This document shows, one piece after another, positions 6,446 to 32,707 of a stretch of DNA of 64,000 bases. The DNA lies in the NCBI GenBank assembly GCA_944324405.1, contig CALUWF010000001.1, forward strand, positions 248,001 through 312,000, given 5' to 3'. The stretch's first letter is position 1. Every line of letters begins with the position of its first letter. The position numbers and the translations under genes were made by a program. The notes beneath the pieces were generated by a model, which ran no database searches, had not been told where the DNA came from, and saw only the letters and a list, made by a program, of their open reading frames with translations. The DNA is from Candidatus Gastranaerophilales bacterium. GTDB taxonomy: Bacteria > Cyanobacteriota > Vampirovibrionia > Gastranaerophilales > Gastranaerophilaceae.

Positions 6446-7797
6446 ACAATTCGCTGTTTTTTAGTTTTGATTTGTTTTTTTGAACTTTTTTTGTACCACC
6501 AATAGATGGACTTTGCGAGTCTTGATGGTGAATGGCGTACAAGACCTTCTTTATTATCTTCGATAAGCTTATTCATAACAATTTCAAGACCCATTTTTTT
6601 AAGTCTTGATGTATCCGTTTCAACGGGCAGAGAGTCTGCTTCTTCGTATTTTTTTGCAAGATTTTGCGGCATAAAGTTGTTTATTAAAATAGCATCAAAA
6701 AGTTTTTTATTGCTTATTCCGCTGACACGGCTTGCATGTTGGAATAAAGCTTGCGCATGGTCAGCTGCCGAGTAGTTATCCGTTTCACCGGGCTGAGTCA
6801 TTATATTGCATACATATATTTTTTTAGCTTTTGAATTCAATATGGCTGTTGAAATCTCTTTAATAAGAAGGTTTGGGGTAATTGAAGTATAAAGGCTGCC
6901 GGGCCCCAAAACTATAAGGTCGGCGTTATTTATCGCTTCGATTACATCCTGCGAAGGTTTGCAATTCTTAGGTTCGCAAGATAACTCTATAATTTTTTTA
7001 CCCGCTTCGGGGATGTGACTTTCCCCTTTTACAATTGAGCCGTCCTCCATTCTGGCAACAAGGCGCATATCATCGGTTGTGGCGGGCAAAACGCGCCCTC
7101 TTATTAAAAGGACTTTTGAAGATTCTTTAATGGCGCTTACCATATCTCCGCAAATGCTTGTCATTGCGGTTAAAAATAAATTGCCGAAGCTGTGACCGCC
7201 AAGCCCTTCGCCTGTTTTAAATCTGTATTGAAATAATTTTGTGACAATATCCTCGTCATCTGCCAGAGCGGCAATGCAGTTTCTGATATCGCCGGGCGGC
7301 AAAACCCCCATTTCTTCGCGTAGTCTGCCCGATGAGCCGCCGTCATCCCCGACTGTTACGATGGCTGTTATATTATTTGTAATTTTTTTAAGACCCTTAA
7401 GCATGGTTGAAAGCCCCGTACCGCCGCCCACTGCGACGATTTTTGGCCCATGGTCAAGCTTCATTTTGCGATATACTACTTCCCCAAGGGTTTTTTGTTT
7501 GCGCTCCGAACCAAGCCCCAAATTCATAAAATTTGTTTTTTTCCATGCCTGTATGAAAATTATCGCGCCAAGCAGTATGAAGACAACCCCAACCGGTTCA
7601 GGCGGCATAAAATGCACAATTTTTTTGGCTGTATCAACGATAAAATAAATCGGCTCAAGCTTAAACAAAAAAGTAAGCCCCAATGCGGCGAGCACCGAGC
7701 CTATTATAATAAGGGCAAACCATCTTTTGACCTTTAACCCCGGAACAAGCCAAATTGCATCTTTTGGCATTTTAACTTTTTTTACAAAAAATTTCAT
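6442..7797 (-). CDS. yvcK: YvcK-family (CofD-like) protein with N-terminal membrane helices
   Basis: 451 residues. Two hydrophobic helices (about 26-48 and 67-85) precede the CofD/YvcK Rossmann domain, with 'VAVGGGTGLSTMLKGLK', 'VTVGDDGGSSGRLREE', 'PPGDIRNCIAAL', 'GHSFGNLFLTAM' and 'LGPGSLYTS'. In Bacillus and Mycobacterium, YvcK proteins bind UDP-GlcNAc-type ligands and are needed for growth on gluconeogenic carbon and for wall synthesis. The membrane-anchored form is common in cyanobacteria. It lies four bases after the PxpA-like gene and overlaps panB, so it is mid-operon. The C-terminus is strongly basic. Confidence 0.9.
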   Translation of the reverse strand: MKFFVKKVKMPKDAIWLVPGLKVKRWFALIIIGSVLAALGLTFLFKLEPIYFIVDTAKKIVHFMPPEPVGVVFILLGAIIFIQAWKKTNFMNLGLGSERKQKTLGEVVYRKMKLDHGPKIVAVGGGTGLSTMLKGLKKITNNITAIVTVGDDGGSSGRLREEMGVLPPGDIRNCIAALADDEDIVTKLFQYRFKTGEGLGGHSFGNLFLTAMTSICGDMVSAIKESSKVLLIRGRVLPATTDDMRLVARMEDGSIVKGESHIPEAGKKIIELSCEPKNCKPSQDVIEAINNADLIVLGPGSLYTSITPNLLIKEISTAILNSKAKKIYVCNIMTQPGETDNYSAADHAQALFQHASRVSGISNKKLFDAILINNFMPQNLAKKYEEADSLPVETDTSRLKKMGLEIVMNKLIEDNKEGLVRHSPSRLAKSIYWWYKKSSKKQIKTKKQRIV

Positions 7798-7801
7798 ACG
7801 A

Positions 7802-8443
7802 TTAAATCTGTCCTCCTACACGGTTATAATTAACCGGTGTCGGTTTTAATACATCATACGCACGTGCAGCGCTTTGAGCATCGCAAAAATGAATTGTATC
7901 CGGCTTAATTTCAAGCTCCCTTATTTGTCTTATTGTGCCATAATCGTTAAAATTTACTTCCAGCGCACATTTTAATCCGACTTCTTTTTCAATAACGTCT
8001 TTAAATTCAGGGTTATTTATAAAAAGATTTAACCAGGGATTAAGCTCTTTTATAGCACAGGCAACTTTTTTTGCAAAATCAAGATTTGAATTAAGCTCGT
8101 TTTTCATTGCCCCATGCAGCCTTACATGTTCAATTTCAAGACCCAGAGCATTTGCAAAAGAGCTTATCGCGCTTATTTGATAAATTACGCTTGCTTCAAT
8201 TTCTTCATCGCTGAGTTCCACTTTTCTTGAACCAAAGCCCTGAATATCTTGATAACCTATATGTGCACCGACTGAAACGTTATACTCCTTTGCAGCTTCA
8301 AGCGCTTTTTTGATACTCAGAGCATCGCCCGCATGAAAGCCTGCGGCAATATTTACGGAACTTACGTATTTTATTGTTTCCAATTCTTTTTCATTTTTGT
8401 AAACGCCGTATTGTTGGGCGCAATCACAGTTAAAATCAAACAC
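7802..8443 (-). CDS. LamB/YcsF (PxpA-like) family protein, short divergent form
   Basis: 213 residues against about 245-255 for PxpA, the 5-oxoprolinase subunit A. Family landmarks remain: 'FNCDCAQQYG' (usually LNCDxGExFG), 'VNIAAGFHAGD', 'VGAHIGYQD' (usually GAHPSYPD) and 'HVRLHGAMKN' (usually HVKPHGALYN). The partner subunits PxpB and PxpC are not nearby, and several metal- or substrate-site neighbours differ, so oxoprolinase activity is doubtful. The GTG start is supported by AAAGGAAAAGATTA. First gene of the yvcK-panBC operon. Confidence 0.8.
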   Translation of the reverse strand: MFDFNCDCAQQYGVYKNEKELETIKYVSSVNIAAGFHAGDALSIKKALEAAKEYNVSVGAHIGYQDIQGFGSRKVELSDEEIEASVIYQISAISSFANALGLEIEHVRLHGAMKNELNSNLDFAKKVACAIKELNPWLNLFINNPEFKDVIEKEVGLKCALEVNFNDYGTIRQIRELEIKPDTIHFCDAQSAARAYDVLKPTPVNYNRVGGQI

Positions 8444-8551
8444 TAATCTTTTCCTTTAATCCTCTAACTGATTATAAGAAAATTATACAACAAAATGTTT
8501 AATTATGTTAGCTGTTATGGGAATTTTCATATATTTTTACGACTCTAAGGC

Positions 8552-9214
8552 TTATCTTAAAGTATTGTATATTCTATCTCCCGCATCGCCAAGCCCGGGG
8601 ACAATATAGCCTTTTGAGTTTAATTCCTTATCGATGGCGCAGGTTATAATTCTTACGTCCTCAAAAGTCGTGCTCAGGCGCTCTACCCCCTGCGGAGCCG
8701 CAAGCAAACATATGAAGGTGATATTTTTTTGCGGTATTCCTTTTTTTACAAAGTTACCGACTCCGTCAACCGCCGAATTTCCCGTGGCAAGCATGGGGTC
8801 AAGTACAAAAACGTATGTATTTTGCGGGTCTTTTGGCGCTTCGCTTATTTTATTATAATACCAGACAGGCTGCAGCGTTCTTTCATCGCGATACATCCCG
8901 AGGTGGTGAATATGAGCCTGGGGCATCATTTCCTGTGCCACTTCACAAAACATCATCCCTGCGCGCAAAATAGGCGCTATTATTAAATTCAAATCTTCTC
9001 TGATTGTTTCGCTCTCGCACTCGCAAATCGGTGTCTTAATGGTCTTTTTCTGGGTTTGCAGATTTTTTGTCGCCTCCAAAAATACCGCATAAGATATTCT
9101 CTTTAGTGCGCATCTGAATTTTTCACCGTCTGTTTTCTCATCCCTTAAAACCGTTAAATTATGCTTTACAACCGGATGATCTATCACACAAATATTGCTG
9201 TTTTTGATTTTCAT
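8552..9214 (-). CDS. upp: Uracil phosphoribosyltransferase
   Basis: Salvages uracil with PRPP to UMP. 220 residues with 'VVKHNLTVLRDEKT', 'PILRAGMMF', 'HLGMYRDERTLQPVWYYNK', the PRPP loop 'VLDPMLATGNS' and 'GLGDAGDRIYNT' near the end. AAAGGAAAAAGT precedes the ATG and a TAAAAT promoter box lies about 35 bases upstream. It stands alone, separated from the GH57 gene by that gene's terminator; no terminator of its own was seen. Confidence 0.95.
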   Translation of the reverse strand: MKIKNSNICVIDHPVVKHNLTVLRDEKTDGEKFRCALKRISYAVFLEATKNLQTQKKTIKTPICECESETIREDLNLIIAPILRAGMMFCEVAQEMMPQAHIHHLGMYRDERTLQPVWYYNKISEAPKDPQNTYVFVLDPMLATGNSAVDGVGNFVKKGIPQKNITFICLLAAPQGVERLSTTFEDVRIITCAIDKELNSKGYIVPGLGDAGDRIYNTLR

Positions 9215-9253
9215 ACTTTTTCCTTTACCATTCCTTGCTATTATTTTACATTA

Positions 9254-9291
9254 AAAACCCCCGAAAACCAAAAAAGTTTCCGGGGGTTTTA
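9254..9291 (-). terminator. Terminator of the GH57 gene
   Basis: Strong hairpin (AAAACCCCCG...CGGGGGTTTT type, one bulge) followed on the minus strand by TTTTTAATG. It separates the GH57 gene from upp. Confidence 0.8.
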
Positions 9292-9305
9292 AATTGTTTT
9301 TTTAT

Positions 9306-11039
9306 TTAGTCAGCATATAAAGGTGCGAGTTTCTTTTCCTGTTGGGGTATAACGCCTTCTTCGATAGGAAGGTAAACTCTGTAGTCAATTTCGCTGAAGC
9401 AGTTGTCGATTGATTCGATTTTCTTTAGTTCTTCATCGTTAATTGCGTTGTTATCAATCATATCCGCGATTTTTTCAAATCTTTCGACGTGTTCCCTAAA
9501 TCTGTCTGTTGCGTAGTCTTTAGCCTGCCATGTTGTAATTAAGAACGGCCAGTCCGAACTTTGCAAGAGCAGATTTTCGCGCGCAAGCTGATTAAGCGCC
9601 CTTAAAAGCAATTTGTCCTCGGGTTGTTTTTCATGGCGCGAAACAATGTCGATTATACGTTTTTCGCAGGCATGGATAATCGGCCACATCCACTCTGTGA
9701 GGTGGTTTTGCCATACCCAGAAATGTCCGCCCTGACCCCAGCTTGATTCGGGGATTTGGATGGCTTCGGTCGGAGGATGTGCTTGCAGATATTCGCCCGC
9801 AGTCATCCTTTCCACTTCGGGAAGGTATTGCGCAAATTTTTTGATAACCTGTTTAATAAATTCCACACCTTCAAACCACCAGTGTCCGTAAAGTTCGGTA
9901 TCAAATGACACCATTACGAGCCCTTCTTTGCCGCCGTGCGCCATTTTGTAGTCGTTTAAGAGGTGGTAAATAAGAGTTGTATAGTGGTCTGAATTTGAAT
10001 TAACCTGATTCATTGCAAGCACGGGGTCGTAGAGCATTTTGTCGCCCAAATCTGTTGTGGAGGATGTTATTCTCCAATAGTGCATGCCTGAGTTAGGGTC
10101 TTTTCTGTGAAATTCTCTGTAGCAGCCGTCGCCCGGGTATCCGTCCGCTGCCGACCATACCTGGAACCCTGCTCTGTCGTTTCTACCCATCACGGCTACC
10201 TGTGCATCAGGCAACCAATATGCGCTATATGTATCATAGCCTGTTTTTTCCCTCTGCGGCAGAGGTATGTATTCAATATTTCCGTAAACTCCGATTGTTC
10301 TTCTGTTTCCTATTGAATTACCGCCTTCAATAACGTGAGATTCGGTAAAGAAGTATTCAATACCGTTGTTTTGAAGGGTAACTTCAATAGCGGGACGCCA
10401 CTTTTTCTTGCCGTCTTTGCCCGTAAATTCATAGCCCTGTCTGTAAGCGCACTCAGGCAGCCAGCAGCCTTTTGATTTTTTGCCGAACAATCTCTTTGTA
10501 GTATCGGAGCCTACTTTGAATTGTGCATTTAAGTTGGTATCTGTTGCCAAAAGCGGCGAAAAACCGTGTGTTGCGCCTGATGTTGTAATTTCAATACAGC
10601 CAAGATCCTGATATTTTTTAAATCCTGCGATTAAATCTTTATTAAATTTATTAATATAGAGGTCTTTTATGTGGTTAAACCAGTCAAAATAGTATTTTGC
10701 AAGGTATTTTAAATGTTGGGAGTGAGCAACCTCCGGATCGGGGTAGCGCTCTAAATCTCCCGATACGGCTTCAATTCGCGAGTCAAGATATTTAATAAAG
10801 CCTTCTTTTAAATGTTCATCGTTAAGTTGTTCCGCCAAAATCGGCGTAATGCCCACAGTCAGCTTTGCCTTAATTCCTTCGTCGTATAGCTCCGCTATCA
10901 TGTTGAGCAAAGGAACGTAAGTTTCAGCCATACATTCGTACAGGTTTTCTTCCCCGAAAGGCCACATACCTGCCATTCTGTAATAGGGAAGGTGCGAGTG
11001 CAACATAAATACAAATTGCCCCACTTTTTCTGATGCCAT
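9306..11039 (-). CDS. GH57 1,4-alpha-glucan branching enzyme
   Basis: 577 residues. GH57 catalytic (beta/alpha)7 barrel with 'FMLHSHLPYYR' near residue 11, the nucleophile region 'GCWLPECAY' (Glu196), the acid region 'VSFDTELYGHWWFEG' (Asp380), and a C-terminal helical domain with 'WQNHLTEWMW' and 'SDWPFLITTWQAKDYATDRF'. The latter motif is typical of bacterial and cyanobacterial GH57 branching enzymes, which transfer alpha-1,4 chains to 1,6 branches for glycogen. GGAGG lies before the ATG and a TATATT box a little upstream. It is monocistronic with its own terminator; no other glycogen gene is in the window. Confidence 0.9.
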   Translation of the reverse strand: MASEKVGQFVFMLHSHLPYYRMAGMWPFGEENLYECMAETYVPLLNMIAELYDEGIKAKLTVGITPILAEQLNDEHLKEGFIKYLDSRIEAVSGDLERYPDPEVAHSQHLKYLAKYYFDWFNHIKDLYINKFNKDLIAGFKKYQDLGCIEITTSGATHGFSPLLATDTNLNAQFKVGSDTTKRLFGKKSKGCWLPECAYRQGYEFTGKDGKKKWRPAIEVTLQNNGIEYFFTESHVIEGGNSIGNRRTIGVYGNIEYIPLPQREKTGYDTYSAYWLPDAQVAVMGRNDRAGFQVWSAADGYPGDGCYREFHRKDPNSGMHYWRITSSTTDLGDKMLYDPVLAMNQVNSNSDHYTTLIYHLLNDYKMAHGGKEGLVMVSFDTELYGHWWFEGVEFIKQVIKKFAQYLPEVERMTAGEYLQAHPPTEAIQIPESSWGQGGHFWVWQNHLTEWMWPIIHACEKRIIDIVSRHEKQPEDKLLLRALNQLARENLLLQSSDWPFLITTWQAKDYATDRFREHVERFEKIADMIDNNAINDEELKKIESIDNCFSEIDYRVYLPIEEGVIPQQEKKLAPLYAD

Positions 11040-24092: not shown

Positions 24093-25139
24093 ATGAAAAA
24101 GATTTTGCCCCATCAAGACTTCTTTTGCGCCGTATTTTGGGCTTATTTTGAATTTTTAAAACTTGTAATTATTCAAAATAAGTATGAAAAAAGCTTTATT
24201 TTTGACGCGGCAGACAAGGAAACAAAAGGAGTAAAGGGGGTGAGGCACAAGTCTTTCAGCGAAAAATACACGCTTGATTTTAACTTAACGGACAAAAAAA
24301 TAAGCGGGAAAATCTTATGCAGCATAGAGTACAAAGAAAGGTCGAAAAAACTTTTTGTCACATTCAAATTAAAATCACCCGATATTTTTATAAAAACGCT
24401 GAAAGCATTGCAACAAGCCTCTTTTGCCCTTTGCGCGGAATTCTTTAATGAACTTGCGCAAAGGCTTTTAGAGGCTCTTTTGCCGGTTGAAACACCTGAA
24501 TTTAACTTTTTTGATTACTATTTTGCTCCTGTTATAAAATGCAAAAAATCTGCCCCGCAGCAAGATTTTTCGGATGATATAACATGTATTTTATACAGTA
24601 TTTATCTTTTTAGAAAAAATAAATTTTCATTTGTCAGAATAAATGCAGATGATATTTTATTTTTAAAAGAACGCAAAAGGTACTGCGCAAACTACAAAAA
24701 TAAAGATAAAAAGGAAATAGCAAAGGCTATTTCAAGGCTGCAATACTTGGGGTTGATTTATGCCAAAAAAATCAAAAATTTTGAATGGAAATTTTATTTT
24801 TTTGAAAATTCCGTACAAAGCGCTTATATTGTGCCAAAAGAAATTTTTACTCTGAATTCCAAAAAGCATTTTGAAAAATATCTTGCGCATTTAATCTGCA
24901 AACTGGCTCAGAGCTCTAAAAGCAGCCTGAGGCTCAAAAAACCAACGGAATTTTTATATAAAAACATAAAATATATAAAACCTTCAATTGCACGCGAAAA
25001 GATAGAGTGCGCATTTGACGAACTTGTAAAAAAAGGAATTATTAAAAACTGGCAATACGGGAAAATCGATGAAAATAAACTTTGCAAAACAGACTGGATT
25101 GTAAATTACAAAAAGCTTTCAATAATATTTTCACTCTAA
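24093..25139 (+). CDS. Hypothetical protein with possible winged-helix segments
   Basis: 348 residues, Lys- and Phe-rich, with no signal or membrane segment. The middle and C-terminal parts (about 170-260 and 270-340) contain helix-helix-hairpin patterns such as 'KEIAKAISRLQYLGLIYAKKI' and 'KIECAFDELVKKGIIKNWQYG', reminiscent of winged-helix domains in plasmid or phage replication initiators. That similarity is weak and no family is named. Monocistronic, with an own extended -10 promoter and a bidirectional terminator. Confidence 0.65.
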   Translation: MKKILPHQDFFCAVFWAYFEFLKLVIIQNKYEKSFIFDAADKETKGVKGVRHKSFSEKYTLDFNLTDKKISGKILCSIEYKERSKKLFVTFKLKSPDIFIKTLKALQQASFALCAEFFNELAQRLLEALLPVETPEFNFFDYYFAPVIKCKKSAPQQDFSDDITCILYSIYLFRKNKFSFVRINADDILFLKERKRYCANYKNKDKKEIAKAISRLQYLGLIYAKKIKNFEWKFYFFENSVQSAYIVPKEIFTLNSKKHFEKYLAHLICKLAQSSKSSLRLKKPTEFLYKNIKYIKPSIAREKIECAFDELVKKGIIKNWQYGKIDENKLCKTDWIVNYKKLSIIFSL

Positions 25140-25152
25140 TATTTTAAAAGCT

Positions 25153-25177
25153 AAAAGCCCCGAAATTCGGGGCTTTT
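25153..25177. terminator. Bidirectional terminator between convergent genes
   Basis: Perfect ten-base stem AAAAGCCCCG/CGGGGCTTTT around a five-base loop, with A tracts before and T tracts after the stem, so it can serve both the unknown gene and tpsB. Confidence 0.8.
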
Positions 25178-25192
25178 AAACTTATTTTCAAA

Positions 25193-26971
25193 CTACAGGA
25201 TGTTTGATGTAATTGTAAAGTGAACACGGCAGTTGGAAGCGCCTTCAGGCTTGTCGCCGATAGGAATACCTATATAAACGTTACCCGATAAGTACCTTGT
25301 AAGTCTTACTATCAAACCGCCGCCGACGCTCATTACATAATTGGGGCCGTATGTACTTGTGCCGACATTACCAAACCAGCCTGCATCATAGAACGCTGCC
25401 CATTGAATACTGTCGTCAATAAATTTAAGCTTTTCTGGCAATATTCTGTTTAAGAAAGGAATGTGCGATCTGAATTCTAACGATGCAGTTACACCGTAAT
25501 CGCTTAAGAGGAAGCCTTCTTCATAACCACGTACGGATGAAATACCGCCGAATTGCATTTTTTCTGACGGATAAAGACCATGGCTTGCCCATTGACCGCC
25601 GGCTTGGATAATTGCCATAGATCTCATAGGCAATATTTGCAGCCTTGCGATATTTGCGTTAACTTTTACAAATTTGTTTGTAGGCAGCCAATCATAGTGA
25701 TAGCCGTCGTATTCATCAGATGCATCCATTATCGGCAAACCTACGCTTGCGCCGATGTTTCCGAACCATTTACCGTAAAAGTCGTCTTTGATATTGGTTA
25801 AGTTAACCCTTAATGCACGGGTTTTATACTCGTTTAAAAGGATTTTTTGCTCGCCGATTGTAGATTTTGTATTTCTTATATCTAATGAAACATCGCCATA
25901 TAACTTATAGTTTTCGGTCTTAACCAATCTTCTTGAAAGACCTACGAAGAAATTGTGCGAATGACCTTTGATATCAAATTCTTTCCACTGTTCGCCCATG
26001 GTCAAGCCGCTGTAGCTGTATCCTAAGTTCAATTTTGTTTCATGACGGCCGATTGGTACCGAATAGAAAACACCTTGGCTGACGGAACGTCTTGCCAGAG
26101 CTGTTGTTGACAATAATTTATCACCCCAGCCCGTGAGGTTGTACATACCTGCAAAGAATACCGCACGGTTCAGACCGATAGCGTCACGACCCTGGTTATC
26201 AAAACGAAAGTCAAAGTCAATCGGAAATCTGTCTTTCATTTGTAACGTCAAATCCGTATATTGCGCGGATTCTTCGTTATCAACCATGGAAACCTGACCC
26301 TTCATATAGCTTGAAGCGTTCATTTCGCGCAGTGTTTCCTGAATATCACGCACGTTTAATACTTTTTCCGTTTCAATATTTTTATCTTTTAAATATGTTG
26401 CGCGGACAAACTTATCTCTTGCCCACTTGTTGCCTTCGATTTCAACTTTACCGTATTTACCTTCCATAACGACGATTTCAACGTTACCGTCCTGAACTTT
26501 TTGGGGCGGAAGGTAAGCTATTGTTGAAATATATCCGTTTTGTTGATAATACTCGGTTACCATATTTGCCATTGTGATAAGGTCGTTAATTGTAACTTCG
26601 CTTCCGACTCTTTCACAGATTAAATCCATAAGCTGCTCTTCTGTAAAGCAGGTATTACCCGTAAATTTAATGGAGTTTAATTTAAAACTCACCTCTTTGT
26701 TTGGAAGTTTGTCCACTTCGTCGCGCATTTTTTTGTCCATTTCAATGACTTCACGACCTCTTTCGTGTTCTTCCATGTTTTCTCTTGTTCTTCTTTCGTA
26801 TTCTTTTAATTGAATTAAGTTTGTCTGGTCAACAACACCGGGGTCAAAGCTGCCGCCAATGGGGTTGCCTTCCATGGGGATAGAAGGTACCGCGATTGCC
26901 TGTGTGCAGAAAAACGAAAAACACAGGAGCAAAAGGGCTATATCCGACTTTTTAAATTTAAAATTGCGCAT
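25193..26971 (-). CDS. TpsB-family outer membrane transporter (ShlB/FhaC/HecB type)
   Basis: 592 residues. Signal peptide (about 1-28). A charged helical linker (50-90) leads to a POTRA_2 domain (about 93-175, 'FKLNSIKFTGNTCFTEEQL', 'NMVTEYYQQNGYISTIAYLPPQ'), then a second POTRA (about 176-250) and a C-terminal 16-strand-type barrel with the conserved 'GGISSVRGYEEG' loop. Secretes a TpsA partner through the outer membrane; the divergent adjacent gene is the obvious cargo. AAAGGAATT precedes the ATG and a TTGACA (27047-27052, minus) lies upstream. Confidence 0.92.
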   Translation of the reverse strand: MRNFKFKKSDIALLLLCFSFFCTQAIAVPSIPMEGNPIGGSFDPGVVDQTNLIQLKEYERRTRENMEEHERGREVIEMDKKMRDEVDKLPNKEVSFKLNSIKFTGNTCFTEEQLMDLICERVGSEVTINDLITMANMVTEYYQQNGYISTIAYLPPQKVQDGNVEIVVMEGKYGKVEIEGNKWARDKFVRATYLKDKNIETEKVLNVRDIQETLREMNASSYMKGQVSMVDNEESAQYTDLTLQMKDRFPIDFDFRFDNQGRDAIGLNRAVFFAGMYNLTGWGDKLLSTTALARRSVSQGVFYSVPIGRHETKLNLGYSYSGLTMGEQWKEFDIKGHSHNFFVGLSRRLVKTENYKLYGDVSLDIRNTKSTIGEQKILLNEYKTRALRVNLTNIKDDFYGKWFGNIGASVGLPIMDASDEYDGYHYDWLPTNKFVKVNANIARLQILPMRSMAIIQAGGQWASHGLYPSEKMQFGGISSVRGYEEGFLLSDYGVTASLEFRSHIPFLNRILPEKLKFIDDSIQWAAFYDAGWFGNVGTSTYGPNYVMSVGGGLIVRLTRYLSGNVYIGIPIGDKPEGASNCRVHFTITSNIL

Positions 26972-27350
26972 TTTTAATTTAATTCCTTTTCATACTTTCG
27001 GGTAATAATGCTTTATTACACTTCAAATAATAATATATAATGGCGATGTCAACAATAAATCATATTAATGATTTATTTTAAGGGATATTTTCAACATATT
27101 TTAAAAACATTCCTTTTTCAACATGGCTATTAAAATATGTAAATAATTTTTTTTGCCATGTATTTCAAAAAAAATCTTTATTTTATAATTAACAATGCCC
27201 GCAGAGGCTCTTTGGGAGGCTATTGTAAAGTTTTGTAAAATTTATTAATATTTCTCCACATTCCTGCAATTTTTTATTTTCAGATGTTTTTATATAAGTA
27301 ATCGGAATTTTATATAAGAAGTATATATCTTTAGAAGAAAGGAAACATAA
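26972..27350. promoter_or_regulatory. Divergent tpsB/tpsA control region
   Basis: 379 bases, very AT-rich. Holds a consensus -35 TTGACA for tpsB (27047-27052, minus strand), a perfect ten-base inverted repeat AATAAATCAT/ATGATTTATT (27054-27063 and 27068-27077), and for tpsA several TATA-like -10 candidates (27292-27330) plus the ribosome binding site AGAAAGGAAA. No coding potential. Confidence 0.6.
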
Positions 27351-30300
27351 ATGAAACTTAGGCACAAAAAATTAGCTTCAGCATTAATTTTACTCAGCTT
27401 CTTAGGTTACATGCCCCTCTCCAGCACAATGGCTTTCGCTATTGACGCAGGCACATTACCTGACCTTAACAATTCAATTAACGGTTCTGTTACAACAGAC
27501 GGCAACAGAATGGATGTAACTGTTCAAGGCGGTGCCGGTGCAGTTGGTCAATTCGACTGGAACAGCTTCAACGTAGGCAAAGACGGTCATGTAAACTTCG
27601 GGTTTACAAATAACTCACAAACATCCTTAAACCGTGTACTTGCTTCAGGCGGTTTATCTCAAATCTACGGTAAATTAACAAACTCTTGCGCAGGCGCAGA
27701 TTGTTCAAGCTATATGGGTACAGGTAAAGTTATCCTTATCAACCCCAACGGTATTATGTTCGGTGCCGGTTCTACAGTAGACCTTAACTCTTTCACCGCA
27801 ACAACATTTGATCTTAAAGGTGCTAAAAACATTAAAGATATGACAGCAGAAGAACTTCAAGCTTACAAAAACCAAATTAACGTACAAGCTAACGGACTTC
27901 CTGCCGATATGGTTACAAACGCTCAATTCGTAAGAGACGGCGTTTTAAAAACAACTGACGGCGCAGCAGTTACATTAGAAGGTTCAAACTTCAACATTGA
28001 TAAATCACTCGGTCTTGCAGGCGATAACGTTGTAGTTTACAAAGACTCTTTAATTAAAACAAACCTTGACTACAACTACGGCGGTGGCCAAGACCCCTCT
28101 AAACACAACCAATCATTCTCAAATGTAAGAATAGTAACAGGCGACGGTGTTAACTTCACTTATGAATTAAACGGTTATATTAAAGGACACCAAGCAGTTA
28201 AAAATAACGATTCTACAATTACAAACAACATCAACGTTGAAAATTCAAGCATTGACTCAGGCGCAGTTTATGTAGAAAACGCAGGCGCTAAAGAAGGTTC
28301 TGATATCAACATTAAAAAATCGGTTATCAAAGGTTACAAACTTGTACAAGGCGATTACGGCGATATCATCATCAAGGGCCAAAACGATGTTAATGTCGAA
28401 GATACACACCTTGAAACAATTAACACATACAAGAAAAGCAATCCCGATGTTAATACATACAACAAAAACGGCGGCAGAATTGCAATTACGGCTGGTAACA
28501 ACGTAAACCTTAAAAATTCAAAAGTTGAAACCGCATTTGCAGGCCAAAGCTTCAACGGCTCAACAGTAAGAGGCCAAAACGCAGGTGACATTTCAATCAA
28601 AGCAGAAAACAAAGATGTTAACATTGAAAACACAAATCTTCATGCTAAAGGTAATTTAACAGTTGATGCTCAAAACGGTTCTATCGCAGCTAAAGATGCA
28701 ACTTTAAGAGCAAGAAACTACTCAAGCCAAGATGAAGGCGCTCAAAACTTACTCAAAAAAGTATTATTAACTGCTAAAGACAAAATCACTTTAGACAACA
28801 CTTACTCGGAATCTTCCAACTATACAACACTTAAAGCCGACAATATCGATGTTAAAAACAACTCTGCAATGCACTCCAACAAAAACATCAATATGTACGG
28901 TAAAGATACAACAATCGCTGACTCTACACTTCAATACAACGGTTTGAACTTCGTAGAAGACGAAAATGTATTAAACAACGTAACAATCAGCGGTACTACA
29001 GCATTCAACGACAGAACTTCAAACAACTTAAAACTTACTACAAACGGTAACTTGACAATTGATAACAACAGCCTGTTAAAAAGAGGTTTCTCTGCACTGA
29101 TTAACAATGATACTCTTGATGCAGAAGTAACTTTAGATAACGCTGTTAACCACGACTCTATCGCTCTTGAATCTACAAAAGGCAAAGTTACAATCAAAAA
29201 CAACTCCGATATCAAAACAAATACAGGCGATATCACAGCTACAGCTCTTGACTCAACAAACGGTGAAGTATTTGTTCAAAACTCAAAACTTGCAGCAGCA
29301 GCTAATGTAGACATCAAACAAGCATTAACTCACAATGCAGGTACTCACATCACCAAAGACTCAACACTGAGCGGTAAAAACATCAAAATCACAACTACAA
29401 ACTCTGATGCTGACATAAATGCAGACCTTGCAAACTTTGCAAACTTAAACTACAGCGAACGCTTAGCATTAAATGCCGGCAGAGATAACAACATAACAGG
29501 TACAGGCGACTTGAACGCTACAAGAGTTGACTTCAACGCAACAAGAAACAACAACATCAACATCACAGGCAACGTAACAACTGACAACTCTACATTCAAC
29601 GGCCACGTAAACAACATAACAGCTACTAAAAACGTAACTCTTAAAAACACAACAATAAAAGCTAAAGATTCAAGCGCTCCTGAAAATACAAGAACAAACG
29701 TTAACGCAGGCGAAAACTTCACAACCGAAGATACAATCCTTGCTCTTAACGGCACAAAACTCTCAGCTAACGCTGACAAAGATACAAACATCGTATTAAG
29801 CGGTGCAAACAACAAAAAAGCAGGTATCGAAATCAACGCAAAATACACAAGCGACCAACTTTCAAACAAAACGGTTACAATCAATGCAGCTGATAACACA
29901 CTTGCAATCTCTAAAATCAAATCAGGCAACTTGAACCTTGACTCTAACGATACATTCTTGGCAGCACTGACTGACTTAACAGCTTCCGACTTAGAAGGCG
30001 TTACGGCAGATGCATCAGGCAGAGCATACATCGAAGTAGCTAACTGGGGTAAATTCAACTTAGACCCGATGAGCGAATATGAAACATCATTCACTCAACC
30101 TGACTCATTCACTTACACAGACCACTTCGTACCCGGCTCTCACCAACCTGAAGCAGGTGCAGCAATCGACACTTACAAAAAACACTTCATCGAATTTGAC
30201 TCAAACGGCGTAATGGAAAAATTCCTCCTTGTATATGAAAAACCTGTAGAATGCGGCCCCGCCCCCGACGTACCTACACCGGATGACAACTTCAACCCTG

Positions 30301-30485
30301 ATTTATCAGATACATTAATCAACCAATTACGCTTACCTCGTCAATTAGAACCCACTTCAAGAATAGCACCGATTGCTAACAACACTACAGATCCTACATC
30401 AGGTATCGTAAGCGCAGCAGCAAGAGTAGAAGTTGACGACAACGCAGCAGTTAACAAAAAACAACAAGAAGAATTTGAAATATAA
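27351..30485 (+). CDS. TpsA-like exoprotein with filamentous-hemagglutinin N-terminal domain
   Basis: 1,044 residues. Signal peptide (about 1-31, ending AFA), then the TPS secretion domain: 'VTTDGNRMDVTVQGG', 'FDWNSFNVGKDGHVNFGF', 'LNRVLASGG...SQIYGKLT', the hallmark 'ILINPNGIMFGAGSTVDL' and 'FTATTFDL'. Residues about 280-900 are a repetitive Asn/Thr/Asp-rich beta-helix ('NNVNLKNSKVET', 'NITATKNVTLKNTTIK'). The C-terminal 130 residues are Pro/Asp-rich. Exported by the divergent TpsB; probably an adhesin or contact factor. Codon choice is strongly restricted (AAC for Asn, ACA for Thr), unlike its neighbours, suggesting high expression. A strong terminator follows. Confidence 0.9.
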   Translation: MKLRHKKLASALILLSFLGYMPLSSTMAFAIDAGTLPDLNNSINGSVTTDGNRMDVTVQGGAGAVGQFDWNSFNVGKDGHVNFGFTNNSQTSLNRVLASGGLSQIYGKLTNSCAGADCSSYMGTGKVILINPNGIMFGAGSTVDLNSFTATTFDLKGAKNIKDMTAEELQAYKNQINVQANGLPADMVTNAQFVRDGVLKTTDGAAVTLEGSNFNIDKSLGLAGDNVVVYKDSLIKTNLDYNYGGGQDPSKHNQSFSNVRIVTGDGVNFTYELNGYIKGHQAVKNNDSTITNNINVENSSIDSGAVYVENAGAKEGSDINIKKSVIKGYKLVQGDYGDIIIKGQNDVNVEDTHLETINTYKKSNPDVNTYNKNGGRIAITAGNNVNLKNSKVETAFAGQSFNGSTVRGQNAGDISIKAENKDVNIENTNLHAKGNLTVDAQNGSIAAKDATLRARNYSSQDEGAQNLLKKVLLTAKDKITLDNTYSESSNYTTLKADNIDVKNNSAMHSNKNINMYGKDTTIADSTLQYNGLNFVEDENVLNNVTISGTTAFNDRTSNNLKLTTNGNLTIDNNSLLKRGFSALINNDTLDAEVTLDNAVNHDSIALESTKGKVTIKNNSDIKTNTGDITATALDSTNGEVFVQNSKLAAAANVDIKQALTHNAGTHITKDSTLSGKNIKITTTNSDADINADLANFANLNYSERLALNAGRDNNITGTGDLNATRVDFNATRNNNINITGNVTTDNSTFNGHVNNITATKNVTLKNTTIKAKDSSAPENTRTNVNAGENFTTEDTILALNGTKLSANADKDTNIVLSGANNKKAGIEINAKYTSDQLSNKTVTINAADNTLAISKIKSGNLNLDSNDTFLAALTDLTASDLEGVTADASGRAYIEVANWGKFNLDPMSEYETSFTQPDSFTYTDHFVPGSHQPEAGAAIDTYKKHFIEFDSNGVMEKFLLVYEKPVECGPAPDVPTPDDNFNPDLSDTLINQLRLPRQLEPTSRIAPIANNTTDPTSGIVSAAARVEVDDNAAVNKKQQEEFEI

Positions 30486-30506: not shown

Positions 30507-30535
30507 AAACCCCCTCTTAAAAAGAGGGGGTTTTT
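30507..30535 (+). terminator. Terminator of the tpsA-like gene
   Basis: Perfect stem AAACCCCCTCTT/AAGAGGGGGTTT with a three-base loop and T run. One of the strongest terminators in the window. Confidence 0.9.
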
Positions 30536-30604: not shown

Positions 30605-32707
30605 ATGGAAAAAAGACTATTAACACCCCGTATTTACACAGCTATAATTTTTAGCGCACTTTTTATACAGCTTGGCGCAAACGCCCGCCAGGCGGTGTCC
30701 GTTTGTCCTGAAAAAACAGGCTGGGGTGCGGATAAAATTTCTGCACTGGAGCGGCAGCTGAGGCAGTGTGAAGATAAAAATGTAATTGAACAATATATAA
30801 ACACTCAAAAAAAACGTTCAACATATTTTAAAATCTTTAAAAGGGACAACATTGAAGCATGCGACAATCTGCGCGCGGCACTTTACTTTTTAAAAAGAGA
30901 TAAAAACTCATCAGAATACAAAAAAACTCTTGATAAACTAAACAGCTTAATTACAAAATCAGGCTTCCAAAATGACGATTACAACAGGCTTGAAGTCGCA
31001 AAAAATCTTTATTTGGAATGCCAATGGTATGCAAGCGCGTACGAATTTGAAGAGCTTGCAGAAAAAGGCTTTGAATGTGCGCAATGTTATGAATATTTAG
31101 GCGATATTGAACAAAAAATAAACAAAGACAAAACCGCATCACTTGAATATTACAAAAAATCCATTGAAATAAAGCCCGATAACGCTTCGGCCCTGTTTAA
31201 AATTGCAACCGTTTTATACAATACAAACAGAAGCGATAAAGCTATAGAATACTATTCGCGCGCCATAAACCTTACGGACGACCCGGAAATATTAAAAGAA
31301 GGTATGGTAATTTTCACCCGCGCAATTAAAAGCAAGCCAAGAAATGCAAACCTGTATGAAATTTTGGGCACAACTTATGAAAAAACGGGCGATTACAAAA
31401 AAACCTATGAACTTTACCAAAGGGCAATTTACCTCAATCCCAGAGATATTTTCCTAAAATACCGTTTGGGAGGGCTTTTATATGAAACAAAACAATACCC
31501 TCAGGCAACGCGTGTGTATGATAATATTTTAAGAGATAACCTCTACGAGTCACAAATACGCGCAGGCAAAGCAAAAAGCCTCCTTGCTCTCGGGCAGACA
31601 AATGCCGCACTTAAAGAATATCAGATAATCCTTGCCATATATCCGGACTCAAAACAGGCTAAATACGGCATTTACGAGATATTTAAAGATAAAAAAGACC
31701 TCGATTACATAATAAGCCAATTTTATCCGTTAAACGATAAATTCAAGCCGACAAGCGAATTTTATACGGAATTTGCGGGACTTTTGACAAGCCTTGATAA
31801 AAATAACGACGATTCTATCTCGCTTTATAAAAGGGCAATAGAACTTAATCCCAAAAACGCAGACGCTTATTTAAAACTCTACGAAATTTATGAGCTTGAA
31901 GCAAAGGACAAATTGGCCTTTGACCTTATAAAACAGGCATACAAAGAACTCCCCGACAACGAAGAGATTAAAAAAGTTTTTTTTTATCTCAACAAAGACA
32001 AGGGCGAAAAAAAGGATCAATTAGCGCTAAATTATTTAAAAAACGAACAGTGGGCGCATGCGATAAAAATGTATCAACAGATAGAGCCTAAAACAAGTCA
32101 GGTCTACTTTGCAATTGCAAACTGCTATAAAGCTTTAAAAAATTATCCAAAGGCTGTTGAAAATTATAAAAAATCTCTCTCAATGGAGGGAAAACACTCT
32201 GATACTTATTACTCGCTTGCTCTTACATATCTTGAACAAAAAAGCCCCAAACTCGCACAGAGTATGCTTTTAAAAGCAATTGAAGAAGACCCGAAAAATG
32301 TCAAAGCAATCAAGCTTTCGAATTATTTAAGAGGACAGATTGTAACAGACCTTTTAAATGAAGCCTATAATTATTACGACAAAAAACAGTACGAAAAAGC
32401 AATCAATATCGCAAACGAAGCCGCAAAGCGCTACCCACAGGATGCCCAAGTATACTATTACAGAGGCATTATCCTGGAGGCTATGGAGCTTTATCAACAA
32501 GCGGTAAAAGACTATAAAACCGCAATCAGGCTTAATCGTTCTTTTGGCCTCGGGTATTACTCACTTGCAAAAGCGTATGAAAAAATGGGCTCCGGACGCG
32601 ACGCACTTGAGGCTTATGAAAAATATTTATCCGGCAATCCAAGAGAAGAAGAACTCATTAAAGAAGCCGAGAAAAAAGTCATAGAATTGGGCGAAAAATA
32701 TTACTAA
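30605..32707 (+). CDS. Secreted or anchored TPR-repeat protein
   Basis: 700 residues. Signal peptide or N-terminal anchor (about 8-28). The rest is a solenoid of tetratricopeptide repeats, with clear units such as 'ALEYYKKSIEIKPDNASALFKIATVLYNTNR', 'LYEILGTTYEKTGDYKKTYELYQRAIYLNP' and 'VYYYRGIILEAMELYQQAVKDYKTAIRLN'. Probably a periplasmic scaffold or assembly factor; partner unknown. kdsB follows after nine bases, so the two are co-transcribed, which hints at an envelope role. Confidence 0.85.
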   Translation: MEKRLLTPRIYTAIIFSALFIQLGANARQAVSVCPEKTGWGADKISALERQLRQCEDKNVIEQYINTQKKRSTYFKIFKRDNIEACDNLRAALYFLKRDKNSSEYKKTLDKLNSLITKSGFQNDDYNRLEVAKNLYLECQWYASAYEFEELAEKGFECAQCYEYLGDIEQKINKDKTASLEYYKKSIEIKPDNASALFKIATVLYNTNRSDKAIEYYSRAINLTDDPEILKEGMVIFTRAIKSKPRNANLYEILGTTYEKTGDYKKTYELYQRAIYLNPRDIFLKYRLGGLLYETKQYPQATRVYDNILRDNLYESQIRAGKAKSLLALGQTNAALKEYQIILAIYPDSKQAKYGIYEIFKDKKDLDYIISQFYPLNDKFKPTSEFYTEFAGLLTSLDKNNDDSISLYKRAIELNPKNADAYLKLYEIYELEAKDKLAFDLIKQAYKELPDNEEIKKVFFYLNKDKGEKKDQLALNYLKNEQWAHAIKMYQQIEPKTSQVYFAIANCYKALKNYPKAVENYKKSLSMEGKHSDTYYSLALTYLEQKSPKLAQSMLLKAIEEDPKNVKAIKLSNYLRGQIVTDLLNEAYNYYDKKQYEKAINIANEAAKRYPQDAQVYYYRGIILEAMELYQQAVKDYKTAIRLNRSFGLGYYSLAKAYEKMGSGRDALEAYEKYLSGNPREEELIKEAEKKVIELGEKYY

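What the first reader, a model, noticed from the sequence alone, without database searches (positions are those of the whole stretch)
25193..30485. Divergent two-partner secretion system with a codon-restricted exoprotein
A TpsB barrel and a TpsA-like exoprotein face each other across a 379-base control region. The exoprotein's Asn, Thr and other codons are limited to a few forms unlike its neighbours, so that long antisense frames are open by accident. Such bias suggests a very abundant surface protein. A two-partner system in this non-pathogen lineage points to a colonisation or contact factor.
Basis: partly seen in the sequence, partly recalled or inferred. Interest (0 to 1): 0.5.

Follow-up and report, generated by a model that had tools for sequence, protein, structure and literature searches.

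The report
Abundant two-partner-secreted gut surface protein
An uncultured gut relative of cyanobacteria carries a normal two-gene secretion system whose secreted rod-like protein looks, from its codon choice, like one of the most strongly made proteins of the cell; the system is of an ordinary type, but the protein ends in a short conserved tail of unknown role.

Summary
TpsB (25193-26971, minus) and TpsA (27351-30485, plus) face each other across 379 bases; both match their Pfam families over the curated cut-offs. The lineage is Candidatus Gastranaerophilales.

TpsA ranks 2 of 288 sampled ORFs for ribosomal-type codon use, behind only GAPDH. One part fails: codon restriction does not open the antisense frames; background codons leave them as long.

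TPS transporters are near-universal in this family: 375 of 383 genomes matched, 364 over the cut-off. TpsA is predicted as a beta-helix closest to EtpA, HMW1 and HxuA. A predicted-disordered C-terminal motif (residues 994-1030) is among its most conserved parts and occurs once in this genome. It travels with an adjacent TPR gene, but mostly within one clade.

Verdict: new member of a known kind; the tail is the unexplained feature.

The parts
25193..26971 (-). TpsB: outer-membrane transporter, 592 aa, POTRA_2 at residues 96-171, ShlB barrel at 238-552, VRGY motif at residue 480
   Evidence: Pfam over cut-offs; profile matches to CdiB, TpsB4 and FhaC; VRGY found in the window and L051 copies, RGY invariant in 10 aligned TpsB; codon-use rank 21 of 288
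27351..30485 (+). TpsA: secreted exoprotein, 1044 aa, calculated 111.7 kDa with its leader
   Evidence: Pfam TPS and NCBIfam adhes_NPXG over cut-offs; predicted beta-helix, mean pLDDT 78.9; codon-use rank 2 of 288; mass
27351..27440 (+). probable Sec leader of TpsA, residues 1 to about 30 (by eye)
   Evidence: basic start and hydrophobic stretch read from the translation; no signal-peptide program was run
27741..27752 (+). NPNG motif of the TPS domain (residues 131-134)
   Evidence: sequence; N131, P132 and G134 invariant in 21 aligned TpsA; NPNG described as crucial for folding and secretion in PMC5422565 (passages)
28062..29330 (+). variable middle of the beta-helix, residues 238-660
   Evidence: mean pairwise identity 0.64 and 0.68, pN/pS 0.40 and 0.39 in 14 genus copies, against 0.82 in the TPS domain
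30330..30440 (+). conserved C-terminal tail motif, residues 994-1030, predicted disordered
   Evidence: identity 0.90, pN/pS 0.13 within genus; 13 invariant columns in 11 aligned tails; pLDDT under 50; single match in own genome
26972..27350 (.). divergent control region, 379 bases, with long stretches conserved in the genus
   Evidence: alignment of 14 genus copies; the L048 stretch taken was shorter, 319 bases, and lacks the TpsB end; no Rfam match anywhere in the window
27054..27077 (.). perfect 24-bp dyad (10-base arms), operator-like
   Evidence: only site at 0 mismatches in own genome, one further site at 3 mismatches, control pattern 1; mostly conserved in 14 genus copies; binding untested
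27339..27343 (+). Shine-Dalgarno AAGGA of TpsA
   Evidence: sequence; conserved in the alignment of 14 genus copies, one with AAGGG
30507..30533 (.). hairpin right after TpsA, terminator-like
   Evidence: 6 terminator-like sites found, 5.3 expected in shuffles of the region, so weak as a count
25152..25178 (.). hairpin between gene 24093-25139 and the TpsB stop, terminator-like
30605..32707 (+). TPR-repeat protein, 700 aa, exported-looking N-terminus (by eye); candidate partner of the tail, by linkage only
   Evidence: Pfam TPR families; directly downstream of TpsA in 19 of the 20 genome-contig loci in which both genes were seen, L059 being the exception; orthologue present in 30 of 32 tail-positive genomes

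Best explanation
A chromosomal, vertically inherited type Vb (two-partner) secretion system of Candidatus Gastranaerophilales. TpsA crosses the inner membrane by Sec (inferred), its TPS domain with the NPNG turn is taken up by the POTRA domains of TpsB, and it threads through the TpsB barrel and folds outside into a rod-like beta-helix (family knowledge plus prediction). It is probably one of the most strongly synthesised proteins of the cell and a major surface or released protein (inferred from codon use). Its conserved ends and variable middle fit an adhesin-like contact protein whose exposed flank varies (inference). Stepwise estimates: two-partner system 0.97; strongly expressed 0.85; surface adhesin or coat rather than toxin, protease or iron scavenger 0.55; retained at the surface by its C-terminal tail 0.35.
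For: Family matches over cut-offs for both partners. Solved relatives by profile: EtpA, HxuA, HMW1 for TpsA; CdiB, TpsB4, FhaC for TpsB. Beta-helix model, residues about 38-870; VIA-align Z 31.8, 2.4 A over 352 residues to the EtpA secretion domain, Z 30.8 to HMW1, Z 30.1 to HxuA. Codon use: rank 2 of 288, in the company of GAPDH, ribosomal proteins, 2-oxoacid:ferredoxin-oxidoreductase-like ORFs and GroEL (both named by eye) and an SLH-domain protein. TpsA uses more NNC codons than the rest of its locus in 21 of 21 loci compared, only marginally in L058 (0.30 against 0.28). Synteny and trees.
Against: No expression, localisation or adhesion data; codon use is only a proxy. The codon reference is 14 ribosomal ORFs and a sample of 331,571 bases, 18% of the genome, so stronger genes may lie outside it. 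Phe and Asn codon choice in TpsA goes beyond the ribosomal set and is matched best by GAPDH. No adhesin-specific domain was found beyond TPS. The TpsB model was too poor to use (pLDDT 36).
Confidence: 0.75

Rival explanations
1. The codon bias was imported with the gene from another lineage.
For: TpsA codon use differs sharply from most neighbours.
Against: Same direction of bias in all 14 genus copies and in six more distant copies, L051-L056; TpsA, TpsB and TPR trees separate the same two groups with full support and agree on most inner pairs, although they differ in some inner placements such as L042 and L048; gene order TpsB-TpsA-TPR-KdsB kept in loci with only 34-38% TpsA identity; deviation vector most like the genome's own GAPDH, cosine 0.87.
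Confidence: 0.04
2. A contact-dependent inhibition (CdiA-like) toxin system.
For: TpsB is by sequence closest to CdiB among solved structures.
Against: No toxin domain over cut-off; VENN in 1 of 21 copies, not in the window's; C-terminus conserved, not hypervariable; the downstream gene is a TPR protein, not a small immunity gene.
Confidence: 0.04
3. The tail (994-1030) is a new kind of C-terminal retention or processing signal, held or cut in the periplasm, possibly with help of the exported-looking TPR protein next door.
For: Tail among the most conserved parts though predicted disordered; one per genome here; tail and TPR orthologue co-occur (30 both, 2 tail only, 1 TPR only, 158 neither, of 191 genomes); in g38 the TPR orthologue is kept although not found within 1.5 kb downstream of TpsA. 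Other TpsA are known to be held by C-terminal parts (HMW1, HxuA, CdrA; PMC5422565, passages).
Against: The strongly tail-positive genera sampled fall in one clade, so shared descent explains most of the co-occurrence. TPR codon use is average, rank 100 of 288, which does not fit a one-to-one tether. TPR stays next to KdsB where TpsA lies elsewhere (L059).
Confidence: 0.22
4. TpsA codon bias reflects local mutation or strand skew, not expression.
For: GC skew of -0.25 and AT skew of 0.34 over 29001-30000.
Against: The next gene on the same strand (30605-32707) has no such bias, rank 100 of 288, z 0.7; TpsB on the other strand has a milder bias in the same direction, rank 21.
Confidence: 0.03

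Closest known systems
EtpA/EtpB of enterotoxigenic E. coli
   Same: Two-partner secretion; best structural match of the N-terminal half (Z 31.8 over 352 residues) and best sequence-profile match
   Different: 22% identity in the aligned part; TpsA here has its own conserved tail; EtpA's flagella-bridging role (PMC10284417, abstract) was not tested here
HMW1 and HxuA of Haemophilus influenzae with their TpsB partners
   Same: TPS secretion domain fold (Z 30.8 and 30.1)
   Different: No C-terminal cysteine pair: 20 of 21 copies have one cysteine 67-129 residues from the end, L050 none, so the disulfide-loop anchor described in PMC5422565 (passages) is not present in that form
FHA/FhaC of Bordetella
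   Same: TPS domain fold (Z 23.9 to the FHA secretion domain); FhaC among TpsB profile matches
   Different: FHA is far larger (recalled, and PMC5422565 passages); no haemagglutinin-repeat match in the window copy, one weak hit (E 0.0077) among 21 members
CdiA/CdiB
   Same: TpsB is closest to CdiB in sequence
   Different: No toxin domain, no immunity gene, conserved C-terminus

Membership tests
Two-partner secretion, TpsA | N-terminal TPS secretion domain | tested here: met
   PF05860 in 21 of 21 aligned copies at E <= 0.1; window copy 43.5 bits over cut-off 33.5
Two-partner secretion, TpsA | NPNG turn motif | tested here: met
   NPNG in 16 of 21 copies including the window's; NPSG or NPAG in the other five
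Two-partner secretion, TpsA | right-handed beta-helix exoprotein | tested here: met
   prediction only: pLDDT mostly over 80 in residues 38-870; matches EtpA, HMW1, HxuA, FHA
Two-partner secretion, TpsA | Sec signal peptide | tested here: inconclusive
   looks like one by eye; no predictor was available
Two-partner secretion, TpsA | export shown to depend on the partner | not testable with these tools
   needs an experiment
Two-partner secretion, TpsB | ShlB-type POTRA plus barrel | tested here: met
   PF08479 and PF03865 over cut-offs
Two-partner secretion, TpsB | VRGY motif of loop L6 (name recalled) | tested here: met
   VRGY at residue 480; RGY invariant in 10 aligned copies
Two-partner secretion, TpsB | 16-strand barrel | tested here: inconclusive
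   model unusable, mean pLDDT 36.3
CdiA/CDI | variable C-terminal toxin with VENN-type boundary and immunity gene | tested here: not met
   no toxin domain; VENN in 1 of 21; conserved C-terminus; TPR gene downstream
HMW1/HxuA-type anchored TpsA | C-terminal cysteine pair forming a locking loop | tested here: not met
   one cysteine near the C-terminus in 20 of 21 copies, none in L050

The most novel reading that the evidence does not exclude
A clade of Gastranaerophilaceae covers itself with a hyper-expressed TpsA rod that is held or processed through a new type of C-terminal signal: a disordered 37-residue motif, preceded by one nearly conserved lone cysteine, which stays in the periplasm and is handled by TpsB and/or a dedicated exported TPR protein inherited with it.
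Probability: 0.2. Interest if true: 0.55.

Novelty: new member of a known kind. Interest (0 to 1): 0.33.

Why it matters
It names a probable major surface or released protein of an uncultured gut lineage; no paper on two-partner secretion or filamentous haemagglutinin in this lineage was found in the open-access library searched (the one co-mention, PMC11955657, was seen only in the listing). That makes it a practical antibody, probe or metaproteomic target, and the tail offers a testable case of how a TpsA without the known disulfide anchor is held or released.

Tried and rejected
Antisense reading frames as a real or codon-caused feature: rejected. The run lengths are reproduced by both kinds of shuffle, and the longest frame-1 antisense run varies from 76 to 214 codons across the 14 genus copies.

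Foreign-donor origin: rejected on synteny, trees and shared bias. CDI toxin: rejected.

The tail as a sorting tag shared by several proteins of the genome: rejected, one match in the own genome. The dyad as a regulon site: only one exact site in the genome; a regulator was not identified.

TPR as a proven partner: not accepted. The counting rule for 'orthologue' was two or more matches at E <= 1e-30, one of them taken to be the roughly 28% housekeeping paralogue; the rule was chosen after seeing the output, and for G069 (31% and 29%) it may not mean what it says. The tree of the paralogue (40 of the family genomes, g43 not sampled) puts the ten strongly tail-positive rows in one clade together with G075, so independent origins are lacking; the three weak-tail rows (G026, G069, G085) lie elsewhere and may be chance or remote matches. 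G075 lacks the ShlB match, the tail and the TPR orthologue, but is 80% complete.

Known RNA elements: none in Rfam. Promoter scan: as many as in shuffles, not used. Weak CUB and DUF4468 hits in 5 and 3 of 21 TpsA: not used. Structure of TpsB: unusable. Loci L057 and L059 were left out of the TpsA codon, alignment and tree counts because no whole reading frame was taken from them (L057 is cut by the locus end, L059 matches in two frames); L058 was left out of the trees and the control-region alignment. L003-L015 and L038-L050 are the same 13 genus loci met twice and were counted once.
Full report
WHAT IS THERE. The window holds two divergent genes: TpsB, 25193-26971 on the minus strand (592 aa), and TpsA, 27351-30485 on the plus strand (1044 aa), 379 bases apart. 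TpsB matches ShlB (E 1.3e-33) and POTRA_2 (E 1.4e-18); TpsA matches the TPS secretion domain (E 4.8e-11) and the NCBIfam adhes_NPXG domain (E 4.1e-13), all over the curated cut-offs. They are the only PF05860 and PF03865 matches in the genome at E <= 0.001. Named relatives of the locus are MAGs of Candidatus Gastranaerophilales, among them Candidatus Galligastranaerophilus.

CODON USE. I sampled 14 stretches of the same genome plus the window (331,571 bases, 18%), took 288 largely non-overlapping ORFs of 100 aa or more by a mechanical rule (two ORFs antisense to ribosomal genes dropped), and used 14 ribosomal-protein ORFs (1985 codons) of the main cluster as reference. By log-odds of ribosomal against background codon use TpsA ranks 2 of 288; GAPDH is first (GAPDH by Pfam). 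After correction for amino-acid content it stays second, z = 16.7. It has the lowest effective number of codons of 244 ORFs and the highest NNC share of two-fold codons (0.74) of 275 ORFs. Its deviation from background has cosine 0.87 with that of GAPDH (rank 1 of 176) and 0.72 with the ribosomal set (rank 3 of 177). TpsB ranks 21 of 288; the next gene on the TpsA strand ranks 100. So the bias is a property of TpsA, and less so of TpsB, not of the neighbourhood.

IS IT LOCAL OR FOREIGN? TpsA's NNC share exceeds that of the other genes of its locus in 21 of 21 loci (0.42-0.74 against 0.24-0.44 in the 14 genus copies; 0.43-0.48 against 0.22-0.32 in L051-L056; only 0.30 against 0.28 in L058). The order TpsB, TpsA, TPR, KdsB is kept in 13 of 13 genus loci and in six more distant loci, L051-L056, where TpsA is only 34-38% identical. 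Trees of TpsA, TpsB and TPR (20 rows each) split the same 14 and 6 rows with full support and share most inner pairs, while differing in some inner placements. L050 has the weakest bias of the genus and the longest TpsA branch in it.

ANTISENSE FRAMES. The claim that restricted codons open the antisense frames fails. The longest antisense run of 214 codons is reached in 144 of 1000 synonymous shuffles with TpsA's own codons and in 169 of 1000 redraws with background codons, with means of 176.8 and 165.6. The protein's amino-acid composition is enough.

ANATOMY OF TpsA. The model from 21 aligned copies has mean pLDDT 78.9 and shows a beta-helix from about residue 38 to 870, a low-confidence stretch 908-940, a hairpin 942-963 and an unstructured tail 966-1044. 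Solved neighbours are TPS proteins: EtpA, HMW1, HxuA, FHA and HpmA secretion domains. Within the genus (14 copies) identity is 0.82 in the TPS domain, 0.64-0.68 in residues 238-660, 0.85 in 661-870, 0.90 in the hairpin and 0.90 in residues 994-1030; the last has the lowest pN/pS (0.13; overall 0.31). The variable middle is where an adhesin would be expected to vary; that is inference.

THE TAIL. Eleven aligned tails share 13 invariant columns over genera. The motif is found once in this genome, at the end of TpsA. In 191 genomes of the family it is found in 32, from 9 of 41 genera. One cysteine lies near the C-terminus in 20 of 21 copies, not a pair, so the locking disulfide loop described for HMW1 and HxuA (PMC5422565, passages) cannot form in that way.

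THE TPR NEIGHBOUR. The gene at 30605-32707 encodes a TPR-repeat protein with an exported-looking start (by eye). In 191 genomes of the family an orthologue (rule in Tried and rejected) is seen in 31: both with the tail in 30, tail only in 2 (G026, G085, weak tail matches), TPR only in 1 (G219, 82% complete), neither in 158. In g38 no TPR match lies within the 1.5 kb after TpsA, yet the genomes keep TPR pieces elsewhere. But the ten strongly tail-positive genomes sampled fall in one clade of a paralogue tree of 40 rows, so common descent alone may account for this. The TPR gene also sits beside KdsB in L059, where TpsA lies at another place, and its codon use is average. I treat the partnership as a lead.

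CONTROL REGION. The 14 genus copies conserve long stretches, among them the Shine-Dalgarno sequence of TpsA and a 24-bp dyad at 27054-27077. The exact dyad occurs once in the genome; one more site at 3 mismatches equals the control. No Rfam family matches the window.

DISTRIBUTION. TpsA relatives were found in 14 of 15 genus genomes, own included (the exception, G012, is 75% complete), and in 23 of 58 relatives in all. ShlB-type transporters match in 375 of 383 family genomes at E <= 0.001, 364 over the family cut-off; weak ones may be other Omp85 proteins. TPS domains match in 134 of 292 genomes drawn from the phylum, 117 over the cut-off. The system is thus ordinary for its lineage.

HOW IT MOST LIKELY WORKS. 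Shown: the two partners, their domains and motifs, conservation, codon use. Inferred from the family: Sec export, recognition of the TPS domain by the POTRA domains, passage through the barrel and folding outside. Inferred from codon use: high abundance. Inferred weakly: adhesive role, and surface retention by the tail.

LITERATURE. Searches for Gastranaerophilales or Melainabacteria with two-partner secretion, haemagglutinin (both spellings, for Melainabacteria) or adhesin listed no paper about such a system in this lineage (listings only, and one search listed 15 of 1,933). In PMC4451040 (passages) attachment of the relative Vampirovibrio is ascribed to type IV pili, OmpA, von Willebrand domain proteins and a type IV secretion system; 'agglutinin' does not occur there. 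The library holds open-access papers only.

Noticed in passing
window 24093-25139 (+): 348-aa protein with no Pfam, NCBIfam or credible PHROG match; no relative of it was seen in the 22 genome-contig loci compared, among them six genus loci (L040, L041, L043, L045, L047, L049) that hold over 5.8 kb beyond TpsB.
   Followed up: partly
window 27054-27077: Perfect 24-bp dyad between the divergent genes, unique in the genome at 0 mismatches; regulator unknown.
   Followed up: partly
L031:9086-10552 (-), own genome C6: SLH-domain protein with strong ribosomal-type codon use (rank 9 of 288): another candidate major envelope protein.
   Followed up: no
L050 (CALUXW010000033.1) 7204-10323: TpsA copy with the weakest codon bias in the genus, a long branch and no C-terminal cysteine: possibly relaxed expression or a changed role.
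   Followed up: no
TpsA residues 113 and 118 (27687-27704) and equivalents: A close pair of cysteines inside the TPS domain in 21 of 21 copies, a possible disulfide in the secretion domain.
   Followed up: no
G016:C2 (L016), G026:C49 (L017), L058: Larger or multiple TpsA copies in other genera: a 1415-aa frame in G016, two adjacent copies in G026, three partial matches in L058.
   Followed up: no
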